This document shows, piece after piece, positions 11,967 through 63,782 of a stretch of DNA of 64,000 nucleotides. The number at the start of each line of letters is the position of its first letter. Within the stretch, counting starts at the first letter, position 1. Source of the stretch: Trachythela sp. YZ-2020 (taxonomy: Eukaryota > Cnidaria > Anthozoa > Malacalcyonacea > Clavulariidae); assembly GCA_016169945.1 (NCBI GenBank), contig JADLSH010000073.1:124001-188000 (forward strand), read 5' to 3'. The translations under genes were made by a program, and so were the position numbers. The notes beneath the pieces are model-generated. The model was not told the DNA's origin, did no database searches, and saw only the letters and a list, made by a program, of their open reading frames with translations.

Positions 11967-13361
11967 AAAGAAAAGCAATTATTACAAAACAAGAATCTGA
12001 TCCGCTCAATTATAAAAAAGCCAGAAATCAAACAAATACCGAAATAAGAAAAGCCAAAACAGACTATTATTCTAAAAAGATTGCTAACCAAAAGTGCAAC
12101 CCAAAACAGGCTTGGAAAACTATAAATAGTTTGATTGGAAAGGGAAAGAAACCCATAATTTTAAATGAACTAATTATCAATGAATCTAAATTAACAAAAA
12201 CCCTACAGACATTGCAGAAGGGTTAAATGAATTATTTGCAAATGTTGGACCAAACTTGGCAAGTAATTTGGATGAACCCAGCTGTGATTTTCAAAATTAT
12301 ACTAAAGGTTCTGAATCCGAGTTCACTGCATTTACACCAATTGTGGTCAACAAAATTTCTGATGTTTTAAGAGGGCTGTCTTGCAACAAAGCATGTGGTG
12401 CTGACAAAATTTCCAGTAAAATTCTTAAATTAGCATCACCAGCTATTTCTACTACACTTACATTTATTTTTAATCAAAGTATTACTCTTTGCAGCTTTCC
12501 AGATGAATGGAAAGTAGCTAGAGTTTTACCTCTTTATAAAAGTGGTCATCGTAATATTCCTGGTAATTACAGGCCAATATCGATACTACCAGTCATAAGC
12601 AAAACCAGCTGTATGAATATTTAACTAAAAACGAAATTCTTTCTGATAACCAGTTTGGCTTTCGTAAGTTTCACTCCACCGCTACGTCCCTATTAGAGTC
12701 AACAAATAGTTGGTACGTTAACATGGATAGAAAAATGTTTAACTTAGTAGTTTTTATAGATCTGAAAAAAGCATTTGACACCGTAGATCATCAAATTCTA
12801 CTTGAGAAGATGAGAATTTATGGTATTAAGGATAAGGCACTTTCGTTGTTGAGATCATATCTTACTGATCGCACCCAAAAATGCCAAGTAAATGGTGTCG
12901 TCTCGTCTGAACACAAAGTTAAATGTGGTGTTCCTCAATGCTCCATTTTAGGTCCTTTATTTTTGCTAATATACATAAATGATTTATCTGAATGCCTAAA
13001 TAGGATAAAACCAAGACTTTTTGCCGATGACACAAACCTAACTGCTTCCGGTGGATCAATAAATGATGTTGAAAATGCAATGAACTCTGATTTGGAAAAC
13101 CTCAGAATGTGCCTAAACGCAAACAAACTGAGCCTAAACATTGCTAAAACTGAATTTATGCTTATTGGAACAAGATCTCTAGTGCATACTGTTTCAGATT
13201 CACATTTAAACATAATATTTGAAAACAAACCAATTAAACAAGTGCAGGAATATAAGACACTAGGAGTAATAGTTGATCAGCATCTATCTTGGAAAAGCAA
13301 CACTGAGAGTATCTGTAAGAAAATCACATCAGGCATTTCTGTTATTAGAAAACTAAAATAA
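11939..13361 (+). pseudogene. LINE reverse transcriptase domain, interrupted
   Basis: The linker (11939-12226) is rich in Lys and ends in a TWKTIN-like block. The RT follows in two main frames (12256-12624 and 12723-13361). Motifs seen are KACGADKISSKIL, WKVARVLPLYKSG, NYRPISILPVISK, VFIDLKKAFDTVDHQILLEK, GVPQCSILGPLFLLIYINDL and the catalytic FADDTNLTASG, then LGVIVDQHLSW. The FADD aspartates are intact. Frame breaks lie at about 12225-12255 and 12625-12720. Motif spelling matches the CR1/L2/Jockey side of the non-LTR elements. Confidence 0.9.
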
Positions 13362-25503: not shown

Positions 25504-27235
25504 ATGATGATTTCTCTACGATCTGGACTTCGCGTTCTGGTTCTACTGCTGATATTTACGCAATGGTTGACATCTACTGAAGCGGTAATTTAAAATTATG
25601 GGTAACATTTTTAAAATAATGACTAATGTTAATTCAAAATGCGACTTTCTACTTCTTAACGAGATCGAGGTGTATCACTCTAAAACAACGCACGAGGATT
25701 TGGGGGATTTGGGACTTCATTACTGTATATATCTGAGGATTGAAGGATCTTTTTAATTTGAGATATTTTTCGATCCTTTGTGATTTTGAAAAGGTCTTTA
25801 GGATTTTGAGACGAGTTTTTAGATTTACAAAATCCTAGGATTTTTAATTTTGCAACGATTTTGGGATTTCTACAGGTATGATTTTCCAGTTTGTCGGGAC
25901 AATGTAGTCAAACAGATTTAATTAATGGAAATTTATTTTTTGTTTACTATTAAGAAAACCCTTTCACGATGAAAATCTATATTTCTTCGGGTATCGTCTA
26001 CTCCACAATTCTTGCAGGATTTCTTTACGAAAACAGATCTGACCATACTATAAGAGCAGTGTGGGAATTCCATATTGCTATTAGTTATCATAAATGAGTT
26101 CATAGCCAAAAACCCCATTGTAATTTTGTTACATCTGCCGAGGGTAATAACGCGCATAGAATATCTAAACTGATTTTAGACTGAGGATATAGCAGAAGCA
26201 GGTGAACATTTCCTAGAGGCCCGTGACGAAACCTTACAAAACAAATACTCTCAGCAAGACGTTGGCACTGAAGACCAGATAGCAATGTTAACAGCAAGAC
26301 TTGACAAGATTGACGAAAAATTGATTGGTAAGCCGGCTCAGCAGACCATATGATATTGTATTGAGTATTGTGAATTTTATTTCCTGCCAATATTACAAAC
26401 TATCCACAAACGTCTTTTAACTATAGCCTCAGCGTTGTTCTTGTTTCTGAATAAAGCAAACCCTATTTTGAAACCGTGCCAACAGGTTTTCAACTATTAT
26501 CACTTGTGTTCTACACACTTAAAAGTTACTTTATCGTTGTGTATTTCAGAGATTTTAGATTGTTGTCCCGCAAAGAAAAACGCAGGAAAATCTTGTAAAG
26601 ATATCCTAGCAGCAAATGAATTCGCAAGTTCAGGAATTTACTGGATTAAACCTGCATACAATAAACCGGTATTTCAAGTTTACTGTGACATGGCAACTCA
26701 CGACGGAGGCTGGACATTGGTTTACAGTTACAACTTCACAGATTACAACAGTTTTAGCTCGGCAAGCAATGCCATAATCCCCCGTCCAAACTGGCCTGCC
26801 AGTGACGCCGATGTCCCAATCGCAACCAATCCTCCAATTACTGAGTCATCACAGGGAGCGGTTGACTGGAATCTTTGGAAGAACATTGGGGAAGAGATAA
26901 TGATTAAGTCTAATATCAATGATTGGATTGTGTGTCAACCAAGTGGTGGAAGTCTGGTCAGCGTACGACAAGGAGGAATGAGCTGTCAAAATATAAAGAA
27001 CGTGGCAACTGCTTGTAGTGGTGTGGTACCAGATGCCATTTCTTGGCATACTTACAAAACAAATACAGCAGGTTTTTGGTCTTATGGACCATCCTTCAAG
27101 ATTGGTCCCTCGGATTATTATAATTTTAATGCCGGGCGGAAGTATGGCTGGCCAACACATGACCCTTGTGGCAACGGAGGCACAAACCAAAAGAAAGGAG
27201 TTTCTCACCCTAAAGGACAAATCTATCTTCGCTAG
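25504..27235 (+). CDS. Secreted fibrinogen-C/COLFI-like protein (skeletal organic matrix protein 5-like), intact copy
   Basis: Three exons join with GT-AG introns: 25504-25584, 26180-26327 and 26550-27235 (81, 148 and 686 bases; 304 residues). Exon 1 encodes a signal peptide, MMISLRSGLRVLVLLLIFTQ then WLTSTEA. Exon 2 gives an acidic amphipathic helix with coiled-coil character (QIAMLTARLDKIDEKL). Exon 3 encodes the globular domain: CCPAKKNAGKSCKDILAAN, SGIYWIKPAYNKPVFQVYCD, GGWTLVYSYNFTDYNSF, then Cys pairs (CQPSGGS, MSCQNIKNVATACSG) and the end PTHDPCGNGGTNQKKG. The start resembles fibrinogen-C and fibrillar-collagen C-propeptide domains. The whole resembles coral skeletal-matrix proteins of this type. 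It is secreted; ligand binding or matrix function is inferred. The two adjacent ATGs at 25504 and 25507 give the same signal peptide. Confidence 0.85.
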
Positions 27236-30763: not shown

Positions 30764-32465
30764 ATGATGATTTCTCTACGATCTGGACTTCGCGTTCTGG
30801 TTCTACTGCTGATATTTACGCAATGGTTGACATCTACTGAAGCGGTAATTTAAAATTATGGGTAACATTTTTAAAATAATGACTAATGTTAATTCAAAAT
30901 GCGACTTTCTACTTCTTAACGAGATTGAGGTGTATCACTCTAAAACAACGCACGAGGATTTGGGGGATTTTGGGGAATTCGTTATATATCTGAGGTTTTG
31001 GGGATCTTTTTAGTTTGAGATATTTTTCGATCCTTTGTGATTTTGAAAAGGATCTTTAGGATTTTGAGACGATTTTTTTTGATTTTGTAATCCTACGATT
31101 TTTAATTTTGCAACGATTTTGGGATTTCTACAGGTATGATTTTCCAGTTTGTCCGGACAATGTAGTCAAACAGATTTAATTAATGGAAATTTATTTTTTG
31201 TTTACTATTAAGAAAACCCTTTCACGATGAAAATCTATATATCTTCGGGTATCGTCTACTCCACATTTCTTGCAGGATTTCTTTACGAAAACAGATCTGC
31301 CCTTACTATAAGAGCAGTGTGGGAATTCCATATTACTATTAGTTATCATAAATGAGTTCATAGTAATTTTGTAATTTTGTTACATCTGCCGAGGATAATA
31401 ACGCGCATACAGTATCTAAACTGTTTTTAATTTAGACTGAGGAGATAGCAGAAGCAGGTGAACATTTCCTAGAGGCCCGTGAAGAAACCTTACAAAACAA
31501 ATACTCTCAGCAAGACGTTGGCACTGAAGACCAGATAGCAGTGTTAACAGCAAGACTTGACAAGATTGACGAAAAATTGATTGGTAAGCCAGGTCAGCAG
31601 ATCATATGATATTGTATTGAGTATTGTGAATTTTATTACCCGCCAATATTACAAACTATCCACAAACGTCTTTTAACTATAGCCTACATCGTTGTTCTTT
31701 CAAACCGTGCCAACAGGTTTTCAACTATCATCACTTGTGTTCTACACACTTAAAAGTTACTTTATCGTTGTGTATTTCAGAGATTTTAGATTGTTGTCCT
31801 GCAAAGAAAAACGCAGGAAAATCTTGTAAAGATATCCTAGCAGCAAATGAATTCGCAAGTTCAGGAATTTACTGGATTAAACCTGCATACAATAAACCGG
31901 TATTTCAAGTTTACTGTGACATGGCAACTCACGAGGGAGGCTGGACATTGGTTTACAGTTACAACTTCACAGATTACAACAGTTTTAGCTCGGCAAGCAA
32001 TGCCATAATCCCCCGTCCAAACTGGCCTGCCAGTGACGCCGATGTCCCAATCGCAACCAATCCTCCAATTACTGAGTCATCACAGGAGCGGTTGACTGGA
32101 ATCTTTGGAAGAACATTGGGGAAGAGATAATGATTAAGTCTAATATCAATGATTGGATTGTGTGTCAACCAAGTGGTGGAAGTCTGGTCAGCGTACGACA
32201 AGGAGGAATGAGCTGTCAAAATATAAAGAACGTGGCAACTGCTTGTAGTGGTGTGGTACCAGATGCCATTTCTTGGCATACTTACAAAACAAATACAGCA
32301 GGTTTTTGGTCTTATGGACCATCCTTCAAGATTGGTTCCTCGGATTATTATAATTTTAATGCCGGGCGGAAGTATGGCTGGCCAACACATGACCCTTGTG
32401 GCAACGGAGGCACAAACCAAAAGAAAGGAGTTTCTCACCCTAAAGGACAAATCTATCTTCGCTAG
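30764..32465 (+). pseudogene. Secreted fibrinogen-C/COLFI-like protein, copy 2 with 1-base deletion
   Basis: The exon structure is the same as copy 1 (30764-30844, 31436-31583, 31781-32465), with all splice sites kept. In exon 3 the GGG of TCACAGGGAGCGG in copy 1 is GG at 32085-32086. The frame therefore shifts after Pro-Ile-Thr-Glu-Ser-Ser-Gln and ends at 32130 with about 17 foreign residues. The downstream sequence keeps the original protein in the other frame to the stop at 32463-32465 with almost no further change. The loss is therefore recent, or a sequencing error in a G run. A truncated product would keep signal peptide, helix and the first third of the domain. Confidence 0.85.
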
Positions 32466-52000: not shown

Positions 52001-55000
52001 AACTAAAACATGTTTTCCAACAAGTAATTCTCTAACCATGATCTTTTATTAACGATTCAGAGTTACATCGCGTCTTGTATACTGAGAAATATATAATTTG
52101 CAAACATGCGACCACAGCGGCACAGACCATACAGCCAATCATTAATTCCCGTCCACTGGTGGACGGGTATTTAAAATACACTGCCAAACCCGGCAGACGG
52201 TCTTTCGCCTCCTTTCGTGTCCTTTTCTCACGCGACAATATTACGTCATGCTAAATATTTCGCTATTTTGGGTGGCACCATCGAAGTGACGTTTTCGCTT
52301 ATATCTTGCGAAATACTGAATCCTTGAACAACGAGGAGCATTTTGGTGTATAGTTTGTCGTTTTACCATGTCTAAAACTGGAGATATTAAGCAAAGTTGG
52401 CGTACGTTTAATGTCAGTCGACTCAGCCATGTTGGATTTCATTTTAATGAGTTTAAATTTTCCCTGTCAAATTTGCCACCCAAAGTGGCGGAAGCCAAAA
52501 TTGACGAGTTGTGACGTCACTTGCACGAGCCGAATATACTGTTGGGTTAATAATCCCCGAGTCGGCGCGAAGCGCCGTGCGAGGGTACTAATTCCGCTCG
52601 GAGATTTACACCCGGGTATGTGAAAACATTGTGGAATGCAAAGTCGTCCGCCATATTTTTTTGTCATGGACGGGACGGGACCAGTGAACTCAATTTGGTT
52701 ACCTGGAACGATAACTGGCGGTGAAAAGTGAAGCCAAAATAACAGTGCCTACGCCATCAAACGTGATTGATTTCACAACGGCCAAAGTTCAAAATAAGTT
52801 CACGAAAATAGAAAAAAAACTTGAAAAGCTGTTAAAACCTGCACGATAACTTATTTTATCCCATATTTTTATGGCTTTCATAAACTTTTTGCACAAACTA
52901 ACTTATACGGCTTATACGACTGACAAAAAACAAAATATGTTCGCTGTTTGAACAAAAACAGTGAGAAAACTAACTTACTTCAGTCACTCAGTGACAAAGA
53001 TATGTTTTCCTCCTAGTTTTCCTTCTGTAATCTTTTTTAGCCAGTTACAAAGTAGAAACTACTTCGATTTGCAAAAAAACTGTTGTTTTTTTTCCAAAAA
53101 ATAACACAAAAATAGAGTTTACGTACGGACCGCGCAGTAAATAAGTTGTGGGGGACTGAAACTGACGTACGGACCGCGTGAAATTGACTTTTGAGGGACT
53201 GAGACTGACGTACGGACCGCGTAAAAGGACTGGGATTTAGGCTTCACTTTTTTCCGCCTGAATGATTGAATGTTATCGTTCCAGATATTAGAAATTTATG
53301 GAGTTCACTGGACGGGACTCGACCTTTTCGTAAGTTATGCGCATGCGCAAGTTCAAGCCGAGAAGACTTCCATTTTGCAAACTTGTTTCAAAAATAGTTT
53401 TGCACTCATGTTATAAGTAAGTCTCTATGTACGTAAGTTTATATGTTAAATCTGTAAACAAGATAAATGAAAATTATTTAGAGGACGAATTAACAAGAGG
53501 AAAAACAGTCGAAAGACCGAAAAAGGAGCGTTTTAAACAGGCAAGTGTCTATTTTGCATGCTTGCTTTGCCGATTTTTTAACATAGCATGCAGTATAGTT
53601 TGTGAATTTGAAAATGTGTTGCGTGTTAGCATGGTTACATTCGTCGACTCAGTACTTCATGGGGAGTAAATTGTTTGGTTCAAATGGGCGAGGGGATTCT
53701 GCATGCATGTATTTCTAGTATACTATTAAACAAGGGGGGATGATTGCAAATACAGTCATTAACCTAACAGGCAAACTTTCCTGACAGATGTTTCCTGTTT
53801 TGCCTATACCTTTTCGAAACATTAGCTAAGATTAGAATCATGGCTAAGAAACAATGTTTCCGCAACAATGCTTTTGTCCTTGGCCTTACCTTAAATCCAA
53901 GAACACTGAAAACGACAATGCTTGCGAAAACGGATGTTCCACAGTTGATGAGAGAAACCATAATGACGTCTTTCTTGCAGTTACTTTTCACCGGATTATA
54001 ACTTGCCATAGCAATCAGGCCACCAAATGATAAACTTAGTGAAAAGAAGATCTGCGTTGCAGCCTCCAACCATACTCTAGGATTACCCAGGGTATCGAAC
54101 TAGGAAAGATATTTAGGTTATTATTATTATTATTATTATTAATCTTATTTTGCCAGTGCCTTGAGTTAACGACAACCAGATATCAGACATATTTTCGCTA
54201 GCTCACTTGGATTAAGTATTAACTAACTGAATTCAAACCCCTATTAAATTACATTTACGATCCAACGTATCGACATTGCTGCCTAGTGTCTTCATCAAGG
54301 GTAATCTAAAGTCGCAACTTGCCACCAGGGATGAACATACGAATCATTACTACCAACAATCCTGTTGCCCAGAGACATTGCCTAGAGAATCATCTAGAAG
54401 CGTGGCACATAAAGTTCTCAAGTGTTTAATGTAAAATAAGGAGGCAAGATGCTGAAGAAAATATAGACTACGGTGTCAGCATACATCAAAACAGTGGCGC
54501 GCACCTCCTTACTTTGCTTTGATGTGTATATAATAAATTGCAGCTCAGATTTTAAAGTCTGAAAAAATGCTTGAAATAATTTAGTAGTCCCCCTCATTGG
54601 TAATTCAGAACAACTCATGACAACTTTGTCATATACATTCTACACATGTTCAGTTAATACAGATTGAAATGAATCAGGTGTCAATTATGCCCTCAATTTG
54701 CGGTCATGACTGTATGGCATTCGTTGTATAATGTTAAATTGGTTTAGCCAATCGATTTAAAGCAGACTTCCAAAGTAGATAATATTTTCTCAGACATGAA
54801 ACCAATTAGAACAGGTGTGCCACAAAGTTCTAACTTAGGACCAATACTATTTCTTATGTATGTCAACGATTTACCCAATTGCCTAAATAATTCTAGTGCA
54901 TTCATAGTTTGCTGATGATACAAATGTTACAGCAACAATACAACAACCCCAAAAAAAACCTGAATAATAATTTAGAAAATATTCACCAATGGCTTCTTGC

Positions 55001-56975
55001 AAATAAACTAACTCTTAGCAAAGAAAAAACAGAGTATATGATAATTGGTTCAAGACAAAAAATTACTGATATCCAAGAAAAACCAGTTATTAGTATAGGC
55101 AGTGAACCGATAAGGAAAATTAATAAATGTAAGACACTTGGTGTTGTAATTGTGACAAATTGCTGTGGAAAGACCAATGTAAATGAAACAAATACTAAAT
55201 TTTCTAAAGGCTTAGGAATAATGAAAAGGATTACACCGTTTGTAACTGAACCAGTTTTACACACCATTTATAAAAGTTTAGTACTTCCGTACTTCGATTA
55301 TTGTAGCATAGTATGGGACAATGCACCTGACTATAAACTTAGAAACTACAAAAAAATGCAAAATAGAGCGGCAAGAATTTTAACAGGGAGCAGTTACGAT
55401 GTTCCTATAAAGGATTTATTGAACAAACTTCATTGGGAAACGCTAAAAGACCGCAGGGGAACTAAAAAAGCATTAGTTGGATATGGGATTGCACCTGAAT
55501 CAATAGAAAATTTGTTTAGCATTTCCAATAATCAAAATTACTCCTTAAGAAGTAATTTGAACAATTTTATATTGGATAAGTCAAAGACAAATTTCATGAA
55601 GAAAAGCACAAAATGTTGGAACGATCAGATCTTCCAAGTGATCTTAAGAGTAAAACAATGAGACTAAATAAGTTTAGAGCTATTCTTGAGGGTACAGAGT
55701 AGCTTTGTATATATATTTGGTATTCTTGTAAATAGTAATTAGTGGCATGAATAGTAGTTATAGATTAATTTGTAGTTATATATAATTTGTTTTGTAAATA
55801 CAGGTTTAGTTTAGGAACGGTCCCTTGGGAAACAGTTTGTCATAATGACTGATAGGGCTACCGTTGTAAAATATTTTAAAATAAATAAATGAAATAAATA
55901 TAGCTCGGTGATGTGGACAGGAGTCGGAAACCCAGGGCGTGAAGAATGGTTTGCTACCCCTCACTAACCAAGAATAAGGGTATAACGCCCAATAGTTTAC
56001 TAAGCACCATGCAACAATCACGTGAATATTTTTACCTTAGGCGTGAACATTCGTTTGAGGCCATCTCCAGCACCATCCAGTGTCACGGCGCGGAAGAAGA
56101 ATATGACCAGAACAAGATATGGGAATAATGCAGTGACGTAAACAGCCTGGAGAAAAATAAAACAGATCATCACATTAGTTTCACGTAAACTGATAGGCGT
56201 TTGCCAATAAAGCTTCGCAACCTCTTTTCATGTACATTTTCAAAATTGTGTTAGAAAACCCTGTCAAGATATCCGGAGCAATGTTTTGGTTTAAAAAAAA
56301 ATATTTGTACGTTTATTGTGATCCTTACTATAGACAATACTTTTGCTGTGTTAACCATTCTGATAGTAAAAAGACGTTATTCTAAACGTCGATATCTTCT
56401 CCAGGCTAGCGAGTATATCCCCAACGTTCCCTTCCCTATCTTTACACTGCCTTCGACACTGAAGCCCCAATATTTTACCCATTATAATATTATAGTATTT
56501 CATAAAAAGAAATTTACCTTTCCTGTGGACTTGACACCTTTCATAGTACACAGAAACACGACTATCCAAGCTAACAGTAAGACTAGCGCCAAATGCCACT
56601 GTATCTCGCCACCTTCATTGATCGAGGGGGAAAGATTCAAGGCCTTTCTATACCAATAGTACGAAGTCTCCCCAGAGATCGCACACTCTGGCTCGGTCAG
56701 GTTACCATCTATGGTGGGGCAATCTTGGTACGGTAAGGGATCTTGGAAGGATATGAAGAAATAATAAATACACCAAGCTACAATCATGGTGTAGTATATG
56801 CTGATGAAACAGGTTGCAACTAATGACGTCACACCAATTCCACCCAAATATGGACTGACTTGATTCCAGACTCCGATTGAGCCCTGCTGTAGCCGCTGAC
56901 CCATTCCAATCTCAATGAGGAACAGTGGGATACCGAGGACAAACAGGGATATGAAGTATGGTATGAGGAAAGCAC
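42762..56975 (-). CDS. SLC6 family Na+/Cl--dependent amino-acid/neurotransmitter transporter, eight 3' exons
   Basis: Eight exons on - with GT-AG introns and consistent phases: 56975-56518, 56146-56036, 54099-53890, 51515-51423, 48940-48742, 48518-48359, 44185-44023 and 43025-42762. Together they give about 552 residues, covering TM2 to TM12 and the cytoplasmic tail. Hallmarks are LFVLGIPLFLIEIGMGQ, the VYVTALFPYLVLVIFF and LDGAGDGL region of TM5-6, QIFFSLSLSFGGLIAMASYN, SLINCGTSVFASIVVFSVLG, FMLITLGMGSMFGNM and WRYLGPVLALLLFIAGVY. The SMFGNM and GLIAMASYN spellings lean to the amino-acid transporter clade (SLC6A15-20-like). It is a plasma-membrane symporter. The exon with TM1 and the NSS signature (GxxWRFPY) is missing from the window. 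Introns are loaded with transposons. Confidence 0.93.
43071..43630. mobile_element. Intronic inverted-repeat element
   Basis: Left GCTTTTAGCTGTCAAATGAC near 43142 pairs with right ATTTGACAGCTAAAAG near 43610. The adjacent left TATCACTGCGACCAATAATGG pairs more loosely with right CCATTTTTGATCGCAATGAT. There is no coding sequence. The outer limits are approximate. Confidence 0.65.
44023..44185 (-). CDS. SLC6 exon: TM11
   Basis: After TACTTTAG and before gtagga. It encodes FRDDVEYMTGVRPGWYWVIT, WRYLGPVLALLLFIAGVYDM and YYAWVKEE. A 3.3-kb transposon sits in the preceding intron. Confidence 0.9.
45180..45476 (+). pseudogene. Transposon-encoded protein fragment 1
   Basis: The frame starts at ATG 45180 just inside the left inverted repeat. 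It encodes a Lys-rich helix (VSRQKLKKFVDCRTKWAKL) and ends in EWYHHMKCYKKFSDEEK, where H-x2-K-C-Y-K-x-F is a pattern I associate with proteins of large invertebrate DNA transposons. A stop at 45474-45476 ends it. Downstream sequence may continue the protein in other frames. The function is not known. Confidence 0.6.
45881..45950. repeat. Perfect 28-bp hairpin inside the transposon
   Basis: Arms of 28 bases (AAGCTACTCTGGTTTGTAAA... and its exact complement) are separated by 14 bases. It may be a nested MITE or a terminator-like hairpin. Confidence 0.85.
46123..46954 (+). pseudogene. Transposon-encoded protein fragments 2 and 3
   Basis: Frame 46123-46554 has LLRDERILVQIRYKDCVALE and then VRYHKVCYSNYTIF. 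This Y-H-x2-C-Y-x2-Y-T motif recurs in related invertebrate transposon proteins after an E-x-L-x(A)-x-E block. A stop at 46552-46554 and a frame change precede 46688-46954, which contains FDLPWPPLASDLTMTNVKKV and VPCELFNTLAWVCG. A third frame (46988-47221) with KLTGSASVISLLSGLGHCMS continues it. Together with fragment 1 this is one decayed gene of unknown biochemical role. No DDE triad could be identified by eye. Confidence 0.55.
48359..48518 (-). CDS. SLC6 exon: TM9-TM10
   Basis: After CAATTTTTAG and before gtattt. It encodes AIMSTVSFLIGLLLCQNSGE and LALLWVAFFHLIGMNFVYGT, ending in the family's VYGxxRF motif, which is split across the intron. Confidence 0.9.
48742..48940 (-). CDS. SLC6 exon: TM8-TM9
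   Basis: After TTAACAATAG and before gtatgt. It encodes VAQGPGLSFIAFTEAIKKMP, WSVLFFFMLITLGMGSMFGN and GIITPIFDMGL, with the conserved TEA and the Gly-rich TM8 that lines the Na+ sites. It ends in phase 1. Confidence 0.92.
49023..49098. repeat. Perfect 34-bp foldback in SLC6 intron
   Basis: The left arm TCCAATATCTGGTAAATAGA... and its exact reverse complement flank an 8-base loop, AATCGTCA. The identity of the arms suggests a recent origin, either a MITE or an inverted duplication at a replication fork. Confidence 0.88.
49134..49222. mobile_element. 89-bp MITE with perfect 9-bp target duplication
   Basis: The tips TAGACTTGCTCCAAGTCTGT and ACAGACTTGGAGCAAGTCTA are inverted. GCCAATTCA is present on both sides (49125-49133 and 49223-49231). 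Nine-base duplications point to Mutator-type mobilisation. A longer relative is at 51142-51386. Confidence 0.88.
49800..50440 (+). pseudogene. CR1/L2-type LINE 3' fragment in SLC6 intron
   Basis: The 152-residue frame (49801-50259) matches the C-terminal end of such ORF2 proteins: STVWNDGSC, KLQRRAARAITSSTYDIRS, LEDLNWLPIELDLKNREA, CLRSNHTKLALPKPRTNFLK and SFSYRAAKSWNELSSDI. It is followed by a 3' UTR ending ATTTTAATAAAGTATAAAG. It is 5'-truncated, inserted opposite to the direction of SLC6 transcription. Confidence 0.88.
51142..51386. mobile_element. 245-bp MITE, same family as 49134, 9-bp target duplication
   Basis: Tips TATACTTGCTCCAAGGCTGT and GACTTGGAGCTAGTCTA are inverted. Flanks TCAAAAACC (51133-51141) and TCATAAACC (51387-51395) match at 8 of 9 positions. 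Inside are further inverted copies of CCACTATAGTG(T)AA. It lies close to the SLC6 exon at 51423. Confidence 0.82.
51423..51515 (-). CDS. SLC6 exon: extracellular loop 4 start
   Basis: 31 codons, phase 0 (AKTARDECLEEEAKNLTANF then TCKSLDVYLSD), after TTTCTTTCAG and before gtaagt. It has two Cys and NLT/NFT sequons. Its short, variable sequence is expected for this loop. Confidence 0.85.
51590..52215. repeat. Inverted-repeat pair with GCAGACGGTCT motif
   Basis: GGCGAAAGACCGTCTGCCG then TTTGGCAGTGTATTTTA at about 51650-51696 pairs with TAAAATACACTGCCAAAC then CGGCAGACGGTCTTTCGCC at about 52168-52210. A third copy of GGCAGACGGTCTACC is at 51599, in the opposite sense to the first. These look like MITE ends; the full limits are unclear. 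Confidence 0.65.
52682..53310. mobile_element. hAT-like MITE, 629 bp, with perfect 8-bp target duplication
   Basis: Tips CAGTGAACTC and GAGTTCACTG are inverted, with inner paired CTGGAACGATAAC/GTTATCGTTCCAG and GTGAAAAGTGAAGCC/GGCTTCACTTTTTTCC. GACGGGAC is found on both sides (52674-52681 and 53311-53318). Three direct copies of CTGACGTACGGACCGCGT or close variants (53120-53225) lie inside. There is no coding sequence. Confidence 0.88.
53319..53763. other. Intron sequence with a small open frame
   Basis: An 80-codon frame at 53427-53669 + has no recognised domain and runs against the SLC6 gene. I regard it as noncoding intron. Confidence 0.4.
53890..54099 (-). CDS. SLC6 exon: TM6-TM7
   Basis: 70 codons, phase 0, after TTTCCTAG and before gtaagg. 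It contains FDTLGNPRVWLEAATQIFFS and the Na+/substrate-site region SLSFGGLIAMASYN, then NCGTSVFASIVVFSVLGFK. Confidence 0.93.
54772..55905 (+). pseudogene. 5'-truncated CR1/L2-type LINE in SLC6 intron
   Basis: It begins within the RT (IRTGVPQSSNLGPILFLMYV then NDLPNCLNN). After a frame break at about 54900 it continues in the frame 54909-55661 with the residual ADD region, WLLANKLTLSKEKTEYMIIG, CKTLGVVIV, FDYCSIVWDN and MQNRAARILTGSSYDV, then NYSLRSNLNNF. The 3' end has AAATAAATAAATGAAATAAA at about 55880, a typical simple tail. It is on +, opposite to the SLC6 gene. Confidence 0.9.
56036..56146 (-). CDS. SLC6 exon: TM5-TM6a
   Basis: 37 codons, phase 0, flanked by ...TTCTCCAG and gtaaaaat. 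It encodes VYVTALFPYLVLVIFFFRAV, then LDGAGDGLKRMFTPK, a standard block before the unwound TM6 region. Confidence 0.92.
56518..56975 (-). CDS. SLC6 exon: TM2-TM5
   Basis: It starts after TTTTAG with GT GCT TTC (Gly-Ala-Phe-Leu, phase 1 from the missing exon) and ends ACAGGAAAG before gtaaat. It contains the large extracellular loop with a Cys pair (DCPTIDG...EPECAISG) and an N-glycosylation sequon (GNLT). It ends at the conserved KSTGK before TM5. Confidence 0.93.
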
Positions 56976-57060
56976 CTAAAATATATTCCATAGAAAATAG
57001 AAAGTTAAAACGAAAACATTTTACAGATAAATACTCGAACAAATATTGTAAATAATTCAC

Positions 57061-60489: not shown

Positions 60490-60774
60490 GAGTTTGAATA
60501 ATGGTCGCGTGTCGCGGGTTTTAAGTCGCGGGTCGCGGGTAAAAGGTCGCGGGTAAAAGGTCGCGGGTAAAAAGTCGCGGGTCGTAATAAAACTTCAAAA
60601 TGTATTTTCTTGAGTCGCGGGTGGAAAAAATCATTTTATTACTTATTTATTAGTATTATTTCGAAGCGAGTATTATTACAACGCGTCGTTAATACTAACA
60701 TCTAGTTTTGTAATGCAAATTATACAAAATATTCCATACAATTTATTTCCGCGAAGATGGTTTAAAATACTTAC

Positions 60775-61486: not shown

Positions 61487-62335
61487 TGAATTTAGCGACT
61501 CTGCGCGTCGCTCAGTGCTCTCCAAAAACACGTGTTAGAGAACAAAAACTTAAATATTCAGGTTGTTGGTTAGTTACAGTACTTAAAATGTTCCAGCATG
61601 TATCTATTATTTGCGATAATATGGTTGTTCTAAAATATTAAATTGGTGCATAACTAATTATAATAGTAGAAGTACAATCTATTTTAACCAAAGTCTTGTT
61701 TGAGTCTTTCAGAACTTTTTGACTGTTTACGCTTATAGTTCAGTATAACCACACATATTTTGATTAGAGGATTTTTGTCATGGTATAATTGTTGGTTTAA
61801 TATATTGAGATTATACTTTCATTTACGTTGTAGGCTTGTGGCGCTTTTATATAGAACCATTATATCACGACAAAAGGACCTTGGACAATGTTTCAAATTG
61901 AAGCAATCAACATCAAGTTGTTTATATACATGTACAACCCATCTCGCGTACATTGTTTTCTTGCCCGCTAATTGCCTATCATCAATTCATCATACAAATA
62001 AGGTTGCCCTGATTTTTTAAAAAAGAATTTTGAATAAATTTAAGAAAAAATGCACTGAATTCCTTTTTTTGGATCTGTCAGTGCCGCATTTTTTTGGATC
62101 TGTCATACCAATTTTAGCGTTGCCACTAAAGAATGAATGCTCGCTTCGAAATAATACTAATAAATAACTAATAAAATGATTTTTTCCACCCGCGACTCAA
62201 GAAAATACATTTTGAAGTTTTTTACGACCCGCGACTTTTTACCCGCGACCTTTTACCCGCGACCCGCGACCTTTTACCCGCGACCCGCGACTTAAAACCC
62301 GCGACACGCGACCATTATTCAAACTCGGTCATCTT

Positions 62336-62440: not shown

Positions 62441-62885
62441 GAAATCTCGTAAAAAATCCAATGATTTTTGTTTGGACATCTCTTCCGAGTTCCGACAACG
62501 GTCGAAAAGTTTAAAATTTATGGCTCAAGCTCGAGTTTTATACCTATCATGGATATTCACAGTAGCATTACATCATAATTTGACAAGACCTCAAGCAGAG
62601 CGCGTTGACAGATATAAACATGCTGCCTACAATACCAGGCATAACTCTCAATGACGCAATTTATAATGCAGGTTGAATGATATGATATATGATATTATCC
62701 CCAAAGAGGCTTTTCAAAGATAATTACATTAGGCCTATATGAATTAATATTATATATATATGCAAAAAGCTAACTTCCCTTGTGGTCGTTTGAGCCCTCT
62801 GGCCCCAAGACACTTCACGCATGTCTGGATGCGCATGTGTCTGAGTATTGTACCACATGCGCTTGGTGTGGGCAAGAGTATGGTG

Positions 62886-62893
62886 TATAAATA
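62886..62893 (+). promoter_or_regulatory. TATA-like motif upstream of each hammerhead
   Basis: TATAAATA lies 45 bases before the hammerhead core here and at the same place in units 2 (63169-63176) and 3 (63466-63473). It could be a Pol II core promoter inside the repeat. No Pol III box A/B pair was identified with confidence. Confidence 0.4.
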
Positions 62894-62925
62894 CGAAGTC
62901 ACTCGCATCTAGACTGCGTTACAAG

Positions 62926-62969
62926 CTGCACTGACGAGCCGTTGAACGGCGAAACATGCATGTCTGCAG
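62926..62969 (+). ncRNA. Type I hammerhead ribozyme, unit 1
   Basis: Stem I 5' strand CTGCA (62926-62930), core CTGACGA (62931-62937), stem II GCCG/CGGC with loop TTGAA (62938-62950), and GAAA (62951-62954). Stem III is CAT/ATG closed by GC (62955-62962), followed by TC. Stem I 3' strand TGCAG is 62965-62969. All conserved core bases (CUGANGA, GAAA, UH) are present. Predicted self-cleavage is after C62964 (GUC). Confidence 0.88.
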
Positions 62970-63208
62970 AATTGACTATATATGCTCCTTCACTTGTGTT
63001 GTTGAGCACTCTTTGAGGTTAATTGGTGGCTAATAAGCTATAATGCAAAAAGCTCACTTCCCTTGTGGTCGTTTGAGCATTCTGGCCCCAAGACACTTTA
63101 CGCATGTCTGGATGCGCATGTGTCTGAGTATTGTACCACATGCGCTTGGTGTGGGCAAGAGTATGGTGTATAAATACGAAGTCACTCGCATCTAGACTGC
63201 GTTACAAG

Positions 63209-63256
63209 CTGCACTGACGAGCCGTTGAACGGCGAAACATGCATGCATGTCTGCAG
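63209..63256 (+). ncRNA. Type I hammerhead ribozyme, unit 2, longer stem III
   Basis: The architecture is the same as unit 1: CTGACGA 63214-63220, stem II 63221-63233, GAAA 63234-63237. A 4-base insertion makes stem III CATGC/GCATG with an AT loop (63238-63249), a 5-bp stem instead of 3 bp, so pairing is preserved. Predicted cleavage is after C63251; stem I closes with TGCAG (63252-63256). Confidence 0.88.
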
Positions 63257-63505
63257 ATTTGACTATATATGCTCCTTCACTTGTGTTGTTGAGCACTCTG
63301 TGAGGTTAATTGGTGGCTAATAAGCTATAATGCAAAAAGCTCACACTTCCCTTGTGGTCGTTTGAGCACTCTGGCCCCAAGACACTTCACGCATGTCTGG
63401 ATGCGCATGTGTCTGAGACTCTGAGTATTGTACCACATGCGCTTGGTGAGGGCAAGAGTATGGTGTATAAATACGAAGTCACTCGCATCTAGACTGCGTT
63501 ACAAG

Positions 63506-63549
63506 CTGCACTGACGAGCCGTTGAACGGCGAAACATGCATGTCTGCAG
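63506..63549 (+). ncRNA. Type I hammerhead ribozyme, unit 3
   Basis: Identical in core and stems to unit 1: CTGCA 63506-63510, CTGACGA 63511-63517, stem II 63518-63530, GAAA 63531-63534, cleavage after C63544, TGCAG 63545-63549. Confidence 0.88.
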
Positions 63550-63782
63550 ATTTGACTATATATGCTCCTTCACTTGTGTTGAGACATGCGTGAAGTGTCT
63601 TCGGGCCAGAGTGCTCAAACGACCACAAGGGAAGTGAGCTTTTGCATTATAGCTTATAGCCATATATATGTAACTATAACTGTTAAAAATAACTAACTGA
63701 TCAACTAATATTACAAATATAAAATAATTAATGTATGAGTAGAAAAACTACTTGTTCAAAAACTCTTTCAGTAACTTTTGTC

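What the first reader, a model, noticed from the sequence alone, without database searches (positions are those of the whole stretch)
62757..63660. Tandem hammerhead-ribozyme array (retrozyme-like)
Each of three ~285-bp direct repeats holds a complete type I hammerhead: CTGACGA, GCCG-TTGAA-CGGC stem II, GAAA, a short stem III, GTC cleavage site, and stem I CTGCA/TGCAG. The repeats lack protein-coding frames, contain a TATA-like motif and have the size of reported metazoan retrozymes, which produce small circular RNAs. Transcripts of this array should self-cleave into unit-length RNAs with 5'-OH and cyclic-phosphate ends. The core is seen directly; mobility and circularisation are inferred.
Basis: partly seen in the sequence, partly recalled or inferred. 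Interest (0 to 1): 0.9.

Follow-up and report, generated by a model that had tools for sequence, protein, structure and literature searches.

The report
Octocoral retrozyme inserted in TA repeats
A short non-coding DNA repeat carrying a self-cutting hammerhead RNA turns out to be one of thousands of copies of a mobile element in an octocoral genome, and the shared end of those copies, lying in TA repeats, suggests how such RNAs are written back into DNA.

Summary
Three direct repeats (62757-63581) each carry a complete type I hammerhead; a strict descriptor finds only these three in the window and none in 100 simulated windows. The host is an octocoral.

The unit is a high-copy, dispersed, non-coding element of the metazoan non-LTR retrozyme kind. 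Genome-wide, 2,289 sites show one 3' terminus, TGCAG-ATTTGACTATATAT, running into (AT)n; reversed control 0. 5' ends vary. All 83 junctions read directly continue past the hammerhead cut site, so the reverse-transcribed RNA was continuous there: a ligated circle or an uncleaved multimer, not the linear cleaved monomer.

Penelope-like elements of the same genome carry RT, GIY-YIG and hammerheads. In five of eleven such loci TATAAATA precedes the hammerhead by 36-44 nt (45 nt here), and one family also ends in TA-rich DNA. Stem III is a palindrome predicting cleavage as a dimer.

Best reading: a retrozyme copied by target-primed, internally initiated reverse transcription at TA tracts, probably by a Penelope-like enzyme. 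Transcription, cleavage, circles and helper are inferred. The window's copy is atypical and lacks the standard terminus.

The parts
62757..63581 (+). direct tandem array, 2.9 units of the retrozyme
62926..62969 (+). type I hammerhead, unit 1 (cleavage predicted after C62964)
63209..63256 (+). type I hammerhead, unit 2 (14-nt palindromic stem III region; cleavage predicted after C63251)
63506..63549 (+). type I hammerhead, unit 3 (cleavage predicted after C63544)
62886..62893 (+). TATAAATA, 45 nt before CTGACGA, unit 1
   Evidence: similar arrangement in five Penelope-like loci
63169..63176 (+). TATAAATA, 45 nt before CTGACGA, unit 2
63466..63473 (+). TATAAATA, 45 nt before CTGACGA, unit 3
62965..63251 (+). 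predicted unit-length RNA 1 (287 nt)
   Evidence: sequence; folds
63252..63544 (+). predicted unit-length RNA 2 (293 nt)
   Evidence: sequence; folds
63252..63270 (+). TGCAGATTTGACTATATAT: arrays elsewhere in the genome end at the last base of this stretch and run into (AT)n; inferred priming site. The equivalent points of units 1 and 3 are 62983 and 63563
62751..62760 (.). TATATATATA at the 5' junction of the array, running into TGCAAAA
   Evidence: the equivalent unit position (ref 55) starts 8 of 101 array starts
63564..63581 (+). 18-nt overrun of the last unit past the usual 3' terminus
63582..63662 (-). inverted partial copy of a unit, joined to the 3' side of the direct array; its outer end abuts CATATATATG

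Best explanation
The array is a copy of a high-copy non-autonomous retrozyme of an octocoral. Inferred cycle: a TATA box in each unit starts transcription a little upstream of the hammerhead; multimeric transcripts cut themselves at the hammerheads, probably as dimers through the palindromic stem III; unit RNAs are ligated into circles; a reverse transcriptase in trans, most likely of a Penelope-like element (PLE), opens a (TA)n tract, primes on the internal UAUAUAU 19 nt past the cut site and copies the circle (or an uncleaved multimer) backwards for a fraction of a lap up to many laps, stopping at variable points. Shown by sequence: the hammerhead, high copy number, the shared 3' terminus in TA tracts, variable 5' ends, continuity across the cut site, and co-resident PLEs with hammerheads, some with similar TATA spacing and TA-rich 3' flanks. 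Inferred: transcription, cleavage, circles, helper identity. The window copy arose by an atypical event that joined a direct array to an inverted piece at their 3' sides.
For: Copies: 593 candidate regions, 40 scored, 179 matches, mostly 92-98% identical. Shared 3' end: 1131+1158 sites with at most 1 mismatch, reversed control 0 (the pattern itself demands (AT)n, and duplicated loci count more than once). In loci chosen by unit similarity alone, 29 of 40 visible 3' ends sit at this point, 22 of them with a near-perfect 12-nt TA flank. Continuity across the cut: 83 of 83 distinct junctions in fetched loci. Genome-wide 2,221 sites match the pattern extended over the cut; with one mismatch allowed this is a looser test. 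5' ends: 60 mapped positions among 101 array starts; 33 of 101 5' flanks are near-pure TA against 1.2% of random 12-mers in the same loci. Adjacent laps share private variants at 0.45 per 100 bp against 0.11 between arrays. Five tail-to-tail pairs across one TA tract among 100 listed ends. PLEs: GIY-YIG hits, GIY-YIG by Pfam in six loci and RT in one, TATAAATA 36-44 nt before the hammerhead in L090, L091, L094, L097, L098, TA-rich 3' flanks at 9 of 10 sites of one family tag. An anole PLE initiates reverse transcription internally, on AT-rich DNA, extending both strands (PMC11167929, main text read).
Against: No RNA evidence exists here. Rfam's hammerhead models stay below gathering. As a single motif the active fold is not the predicted minimum (-9.1 against -11.6 kcal/mol, units 1 and 3). 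The window's own array lacks the canonical 3' terminus, as do others among the 11 of 40 in the unit-similarity sample that end elsewhere. Few starts suit whole laps of a circle: of 11 mapped to position 1, six begin in TA that cannot be told from the target (one of these, L022, looks like an internal unit beside an expanded TA run), and five begin further upstream; four of the latter (265-268) lie 2-5 nt past the cut, as run-off at a cleaved 5' end might give (about 2 of 100 expected by chance). Variant sharing is uneven: without L062 the 0.45 falls to 0.37, and in several short arrays one unit differs by 5-15 changes. The PLE tag has only 10 exact hits, one unrelated and four within 20 kb on C95, and only three of the nine flanks reach 0.9 TA alternation. 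Its 3' end lies 67-77 nt or more, not 19 nt, past the predicted cut. In the anole PLE the priming site is not homologous to the target and cleavage is dispensable (PMC11167929). L088, L089, L092, L093 and L096 have no TATAAATA before the hammerhead, and L095 gave no hammerhead match.
Confidence: 0.8

Rival explanations
1. Template is the uncleaved multimeric transcript, not a circle: cleavage is incidental, as reported for an anole Penelope-like element in vitro.
For: Continuity across the cut (83 of 83) suits an uncleaved transcript as well as a circle; PMC11167929 found hammerhead mutants inserted normally. Heterogeneous units in some short arrays and in the window; few starts at whole laps.
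Against: Private variants shared by neighbouring laps and three copies of exactly one unit bounded by TA (L050, L067, L075) suit a circle, though TA microhomology and homogeneous parents could imitate both.
Confidence: 0.45
2. Ordinary satellite DNA spread by unequal crossing-over, with the hammerhead a relic.
For: Long near-identical arrays exist (L024, L032, L045), and L024 and L032 share internal structure, so some amplification is by duplication.
Against: Many dispersed sites; 55 of 111 arrays are a single BLAST hit of a unit or less; one shared 3' end with variable 5' ends.
Confidence: 0.06
3. Mobilised by a LINE-type reverse transcriptase that likes TA tracts rather than by a Penelope-like element.
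For: LINE-like RT is present, for instance in this window (12567-13361; RVT_1). 15-bp duplications around Nematostella repeats were read as LINE-like (PMC4918200, passages).
Against: Hammerhead, TATA-hammerhead spacing and TA-rich 3' ends shared with co-resident PLEs. LINE 3' ends in this genome were not surveyed.
Confidence: 0.3
4. The window element is a terminal-inverted-repeat DNA transposon (MITE) that captured a hammerhead.
For: Its two outer ends are inverted copies of each other over 62 nt, 95% complementary.
Against: The inverted ends are not in register (the right one runs about 20 nt further); most other mapped copies have no such arrangement and share a 3' end instead.
Confidence: 0.03

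Closest known systems
Metazoan non-LTR retrozymes (Cervera and de la Pena 2020, PMC7229834; parts 1-4 of 6 read)
   Same: Type I hammerhead per unit, about 280-nt non-coding units in short to long arrays, GC below 50%, many copies, co-resident hammerhead-bearing PLEs.
   Different: Octocoral host; a shared 3' terminus 19 nt past the cut site in TA tracts, and a TATA box at fixed spacing. A review by the same group says retrozymes do not seem to harbour promoters (PMC7761336, passages).
Penelope-like elements with minimal type I hammerheads in pseudo-LTRs
   Same: Tandem habit, inverted partial copies, hammerhead near the end, AT-rich target, defined 'tail' end (PMC11167929, main text; PMC3846280, passages); TATA-hammerhead arrangement in five PLE loci of two families here.
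   Different: The unit here codes for no RT or GIY-YIG; its hammerhead has a fuller stem III; its 3' end lies 19 nt past the cut, that of the PLE family tagged here 67-77 nt or more.
Newt satellite 2 / axolotl retrozymes
   Same: Palindromic stem III region suited to dimeric cleavage; unit of about 300 nt (PMC7229834, parts read).
   Different: Vertebrate hosts; sequences were not compared here.
Plant LTR retrozymes
   Same: Hammerhead-flanked non-coding unit, proposed circular RNA (PMC4918200, passages).
   Different: Type III hammerhead, LTRs, primer-binding site, 4-bp target duplications according to that paper; this unit has a type I hammerhead; LTR features were not searched for.

Membership tests
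Hammerhead ribozyme, type I | CUGANGA ... GAAA ... NUH core with three helices, open at helix I | tested here: met
   three of three units
Hammerhead ribozyme, type I | Rfam covariance model at gathering score | tested here: not met
   best 26.2 bits (HH9) against 52
Hammerhead ribozyme, type I | self-cleavage in Mg2+ | not testable with these tools
   bench assay needed; predicts a dimer
Metazoan non-LTR retrozyme | non-coding tandem repeats of 150-450 bp with type I hammerheads | tested here: met
   (consensus 281 bp)
Metazoan non-LTR retrozyme | GC below 50% | tested here: met
   46% and 47%
Metazoan non-LTR retrozyme | many dispersed genomic copies | tested here: met
Metazoan non-LTR retrozyme | absence of LTR, primer-binding site and polypurine tract | not tested
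   no dedicated search
Metazoan non-LTR retrozyme | highly self-paired unit RNA | tested here: inconclusive
   z -2.51 and -1.93; 60% paired as circles against above 70% stated in PMC4918200
Metazoan non-LTR retrozyme | linear and circular unit-length RNA in tissue | not testable with these tools
   no RNA data at hand
Metazoan non-LTR retrozyme | target-site duplications longer than 4 bp when present | tested here: inconclusive
   flanks are often TA repeats on both sides, so a duplication cannot be told
Penelope-like element | ORF with RT and GIY-YIG endonuclease | tested here: not met
   no ORF of 110 aa or more in the array; such ORFs exist in other loci of the genome
TIR DNA transposon | inverted ends in register across copies | tested here: not met

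The most novel reading that the evidence does not exclude
The thousands of shared 3' ends are the genomic record of Penelope-type reverse transcription on RNA circles: target-primed in TA microsatellites at an internal UAUAUAU, crossing the ligated hammerhead junction within 19 nt and running for part of a lap to many laps. Retrozyme and helper PLE would share a TATA-hammerhead promoter-processing module, so the retrozyme would be a stripped PLE pseudo-LTR living as a circular RNA.
Probability: 0.35. Interest if true: 0.85.

Novelty: new member of a known kind. Interest (0 to 1): 0.6.

Why it matters
How retrozyme RNA returns to DNA, and by which enzyme, is put as a hypothesis in the paper I read (PMC7229834: the circle must be 'properly primed'). 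This genome supplies over two thousand candidate insertion ends with one predicted priming base, a target (TA tracts) and a candidate enzyme family, so the question becomes testable with one protein, one RNA and one target DNA.

Tried and rejected
Satellite by crossing-over only: rejected as the main process by the shared 3' end with variable 5' ends, though long arrays show some duplication. DNA transposon with inverted ends: suggested by the window copy, rejected because most other mapped copies do not share it. Linear hammerhead-cleaved monomer as template: rejected, since reverse transcription from the shared end would run off after 19 nt, yet 83 of 83 junctions read go on. 'Eleven of 101 starts at whole laps': withdrawn on re-reading; six begin in TA that cannot be told from the target and five further upstream.

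Led nowhere: scans of viral contigs, prokaryote genomes and phages gave no match, as expected for an animal repeat. A PDB search with the PLE RT piece found nothing. One paper id was not held and one paper query was malformed. Passages of PMC8490949 on schistosome repeats gave nothing used. Paper searches for hammerhead with octocoral, for Penelope with microsatellite or TA repeat and for retrozyme with target-primed listed no paper whose title or abstract start is about this family or TA-tract ends; that is all I can say about print, and supplements were not read. snRNA-type promoter elements (octamer-like ATGCAAAA; newt satellite 2 recalled) were considered and left as speculation.

Unfinished for want of an answer: the genome tool was often busy. 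So the counts of internal units and of hammerhead strings, a hammerhead-family search of the genome, a direct TA count behind the PLE tag, a stricter count of ends crossing the cut and a search for empty sites of host repeats were not obtained.

Full report
What is there. The window ends with three direct repeats of about 285 bp (62757-63581), each with a complete type I hammerhead: stem I CTGCA/TGCAG, CTGACGA, stem II GCCG...CGGC, GAAA, a stem III made of the palindrome ACATGCATGT (four nt longer in unit 2) and a GTC cleavage site. A strict descriptor finds these three and no other on both strands, and none in 100 simulated windows. Rfam's models do not reach gathering; the best is Hammerhead_HH9 at 26.2 bits against 52. 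There is no frame of 110 aa or more over the array. Each unit has TATAAATA 45 nt before the ribozyme core.

Host. Paramuricea is an octocoral (Dendronephthya recalled as one). The genome held has 578 Mb in 396 contigs.

Copies. A unit query gave 593 candidate regions, of which 40 were scored, with 179 matches. I fetched 38 stretches covering the places listed there and 40 stretches covering the first 47 of the 100 places listed by a 3'-end pattern. In the first set 119 full units had 62 distinct sequences; 105 of 119 carry the identical hammerhead core string, and the majority unit is 281 bp. Over both sets a stricter test counts 229 intact hammerheads against 255 unit copies that span it. The first set was chosen for similarity to the window, so integrity is biased upwards.

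A shared 3' end. Mapping showed that arrays tend to end at one place...TGCAG ATTTGAC TATATAT, 19 nt past the predicted cut, and run on into (AT)n. The pattern GCAGATTTGACTATATATATATAT with at most one mismatch occurs 1131 + 1158 times; its reversed control 0 times. That pattern demands the TA flank, and duplicated loci count more than once. In the loci picked by unit similarity alone, 29 of 40 visible 3' ends are at this point and 22 of those have a near-perfect 12-nt TA flank. The other 11 end elsewhere, the window's array among them.

Variable 5' ends. Among 101 array starts (identical junctions counted once) 60 mapped positions occur. 33 of 101 5' flanks are near-pure TA over 12 nt, against 1.2% of random 12-mers in the same loci. 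Eight starts are at TATAATGC, the site that the window array also uses, though a TA flank can be drawn into such an alignment. Eleven were first mapped to position 1, a whole number of laps; re-reading shows that six begin in TA that cannot be told from the target (one, L022, is probably internal to a longer array) and five begin 8-17 nt earlier, four of them 2-5 nt past the cut site. Fifty-five of 111 arrays are one BLAST hit (a unit or less); the longest has 17 hits. Among the 100 listed 3' ends, five pairs face each other across one TA tract and three pairs lie back to back (the three are all on one contig and may be duplicates).

Template. Reverse transcription starting at the shared end would meet the hammerhead cut site after 19 nt. 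All 83 distinct junctions in fetched loci go past it by at least 5 nt. Genome-wide, 2,221 sites match the pattern extended by three bases over the cut, against 2,289 for the shorter one. With one mismatch allowed, a random upstream pair would still pass about 7 times in 16, so this bounds the non-continuing share at roughly 5% rather than measuring it. The copied RNA was thus continuous across the cut: a ligated circle, or a transcript that had not cut itself there. Starts within 1 nt of the cut are 0 of 101, where about one is expected by chance; 4 of 100 lie 2-5 nt past it, about twice chance, and could be run-off at a cleaved 5' end of a longer RNA. Neighbouring laps share private variants at 0.45 per 100 bp, between arrays 0.11; without the diverged locus L062, 0.37. 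That leans to a circle, but homogeneous parents would do the same, and several arrays have one odd unit.

Helper. The genome has GIY-YIG frames (46 matches, 150 of 921 candidates scored). Twelve came as loci; one (L087) looks bacterial by its neighbouring frame (not tested) and was left out. Of the eleven others I submitted frames of six (L088, L089, L091, L093, L094, L097): Pfam finds GIY-YIG in all six and RT in the one RT frame submitted (L093). Hammerhead-like motifs follow the frame by about 120-200 bp where the frame end is clear, with a second, inverted one in L089, L093, L097 and L098. TATAAATA precedes the hammerhead at 36 nt (L097, L098), 40 nt (L090) and 44 nt (L091, L094); L088, L089, L092, L093 and L096 have none there and L095 gave no hammerhead match. 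These five loci fall into two families by sequence. One PLE family ends TTTAAACCAACACTA and then TA-rich DNA: 9 of 10 genome hits of this tag (best 12-nt TA alternation 0.73-1.00, three of them at 0.9 or more; four of the nine within 20 kb on C95; the tenth is unrelated). One of these (L104) meets a retrozyme 3' end across the same tract. An anole PLE starts reverse transcription inside its RNA, prefers AT-rich DNA and extends both strands (PMC11167929, main text read). PLEs with inverted pseudo-LTRs are described in PMC3846280 (passages). Differences remain: in the anole element priming is at a site not homologous to the target and cleavage is dispensable.

Folding. As a single motif the hammerhead fold scores -9.1 against an MFE of -11.6 kcal/mol in units 1 and 3, and -13.3 against -14.0 in unit 2. 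Two copies of the unit-1 motif cofold into a double hammerhead through the 10-bp palindrome at -34.9. Published axolotl retrozymes cleave poorly alone and better as dimers (PMC7229834, parts 1-4 of 6 read). Unit RNAs are more stable than shuffles by 2.5 and 1.9 standard deviations and 60% paired as circles.

The window copy. Its left end joins a TA tract in the common way. Its last unit overruns the usual terminus by 18 nt and is fused to the inverted piece, whose outer end also meets ATATATAT. Both outer ends are of the 5' type and the two parts meet at their 3' sides. I read this as a rearranged insertion rather than a DNA transposon, because most other mapped copies do not share it.

Verdict. 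A new member of the metazoan retrozyme kind, in an octocoral, with an unusually informative set of insertion ends. The element itself is of a known kind; the priming site, the TA target and the arrangement shared with PLEs are what I did not find described in the listings of my searches or in the parts of papers read.

Noticed in passing
L009, L010, L036, L038, L049, L052, L055, L056, L073, L074 flanks: Many retrozyme insertions abut, across their TA tract, pieces of one other repeat (GAGGTAAGCGAAAATCTATATA or its complement), which looks palindromic around TA and could give empty sites; the pattern search for them did not complete.
   Followed up: partly
L097, 1066-1767 +: A GIY-YIG frame of a Penelope-like element carries a long run of asparagines; its relative L098 lacks most of it. 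N-rich inserts were described in rotifer Penelope (PMC3846280, passages).
   Followed up: no
window 26354-27235 and 31630-32465: Two fibrinogen-C-like frames, nearly identical by eye, the second broken into two overlapping frames: probably a recent tandem duplication.
   Followed up: no
window 60503-60582 and 62227-62313: Two minisatellites that are reverse complements of each other (GGTCGCGGGTAAAA / ACCCGCGACCTTTT), about 1.6 kb apart, just upstream of the array.
   Followed up: no
window 53764-57060, - strand: Pieces of a sodium:neurotransmitter symporter (SNF) gene.
   Followed up: no
L024 and L032: Two long arrays on contigs C350 and C194 share the same internal rearrangement and the same 5' flank, so one is probably a duplicate or allele of the other.
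   Followed up: no
L091, L096: Full retrozyme units lie within the same 3.2 kb as Penelope-like GIY-YIG frames in 2 of 11 loci (a 24-nt stub in L093), more than the copy density suggests; not tested statistically.
   Followed up: partly
L022, 1408-1433: Inside an array the unit's TATATAT is expanded to a long TA run, either a microsatellite growing within the element or one array inserted behind another.
   Followed up: no
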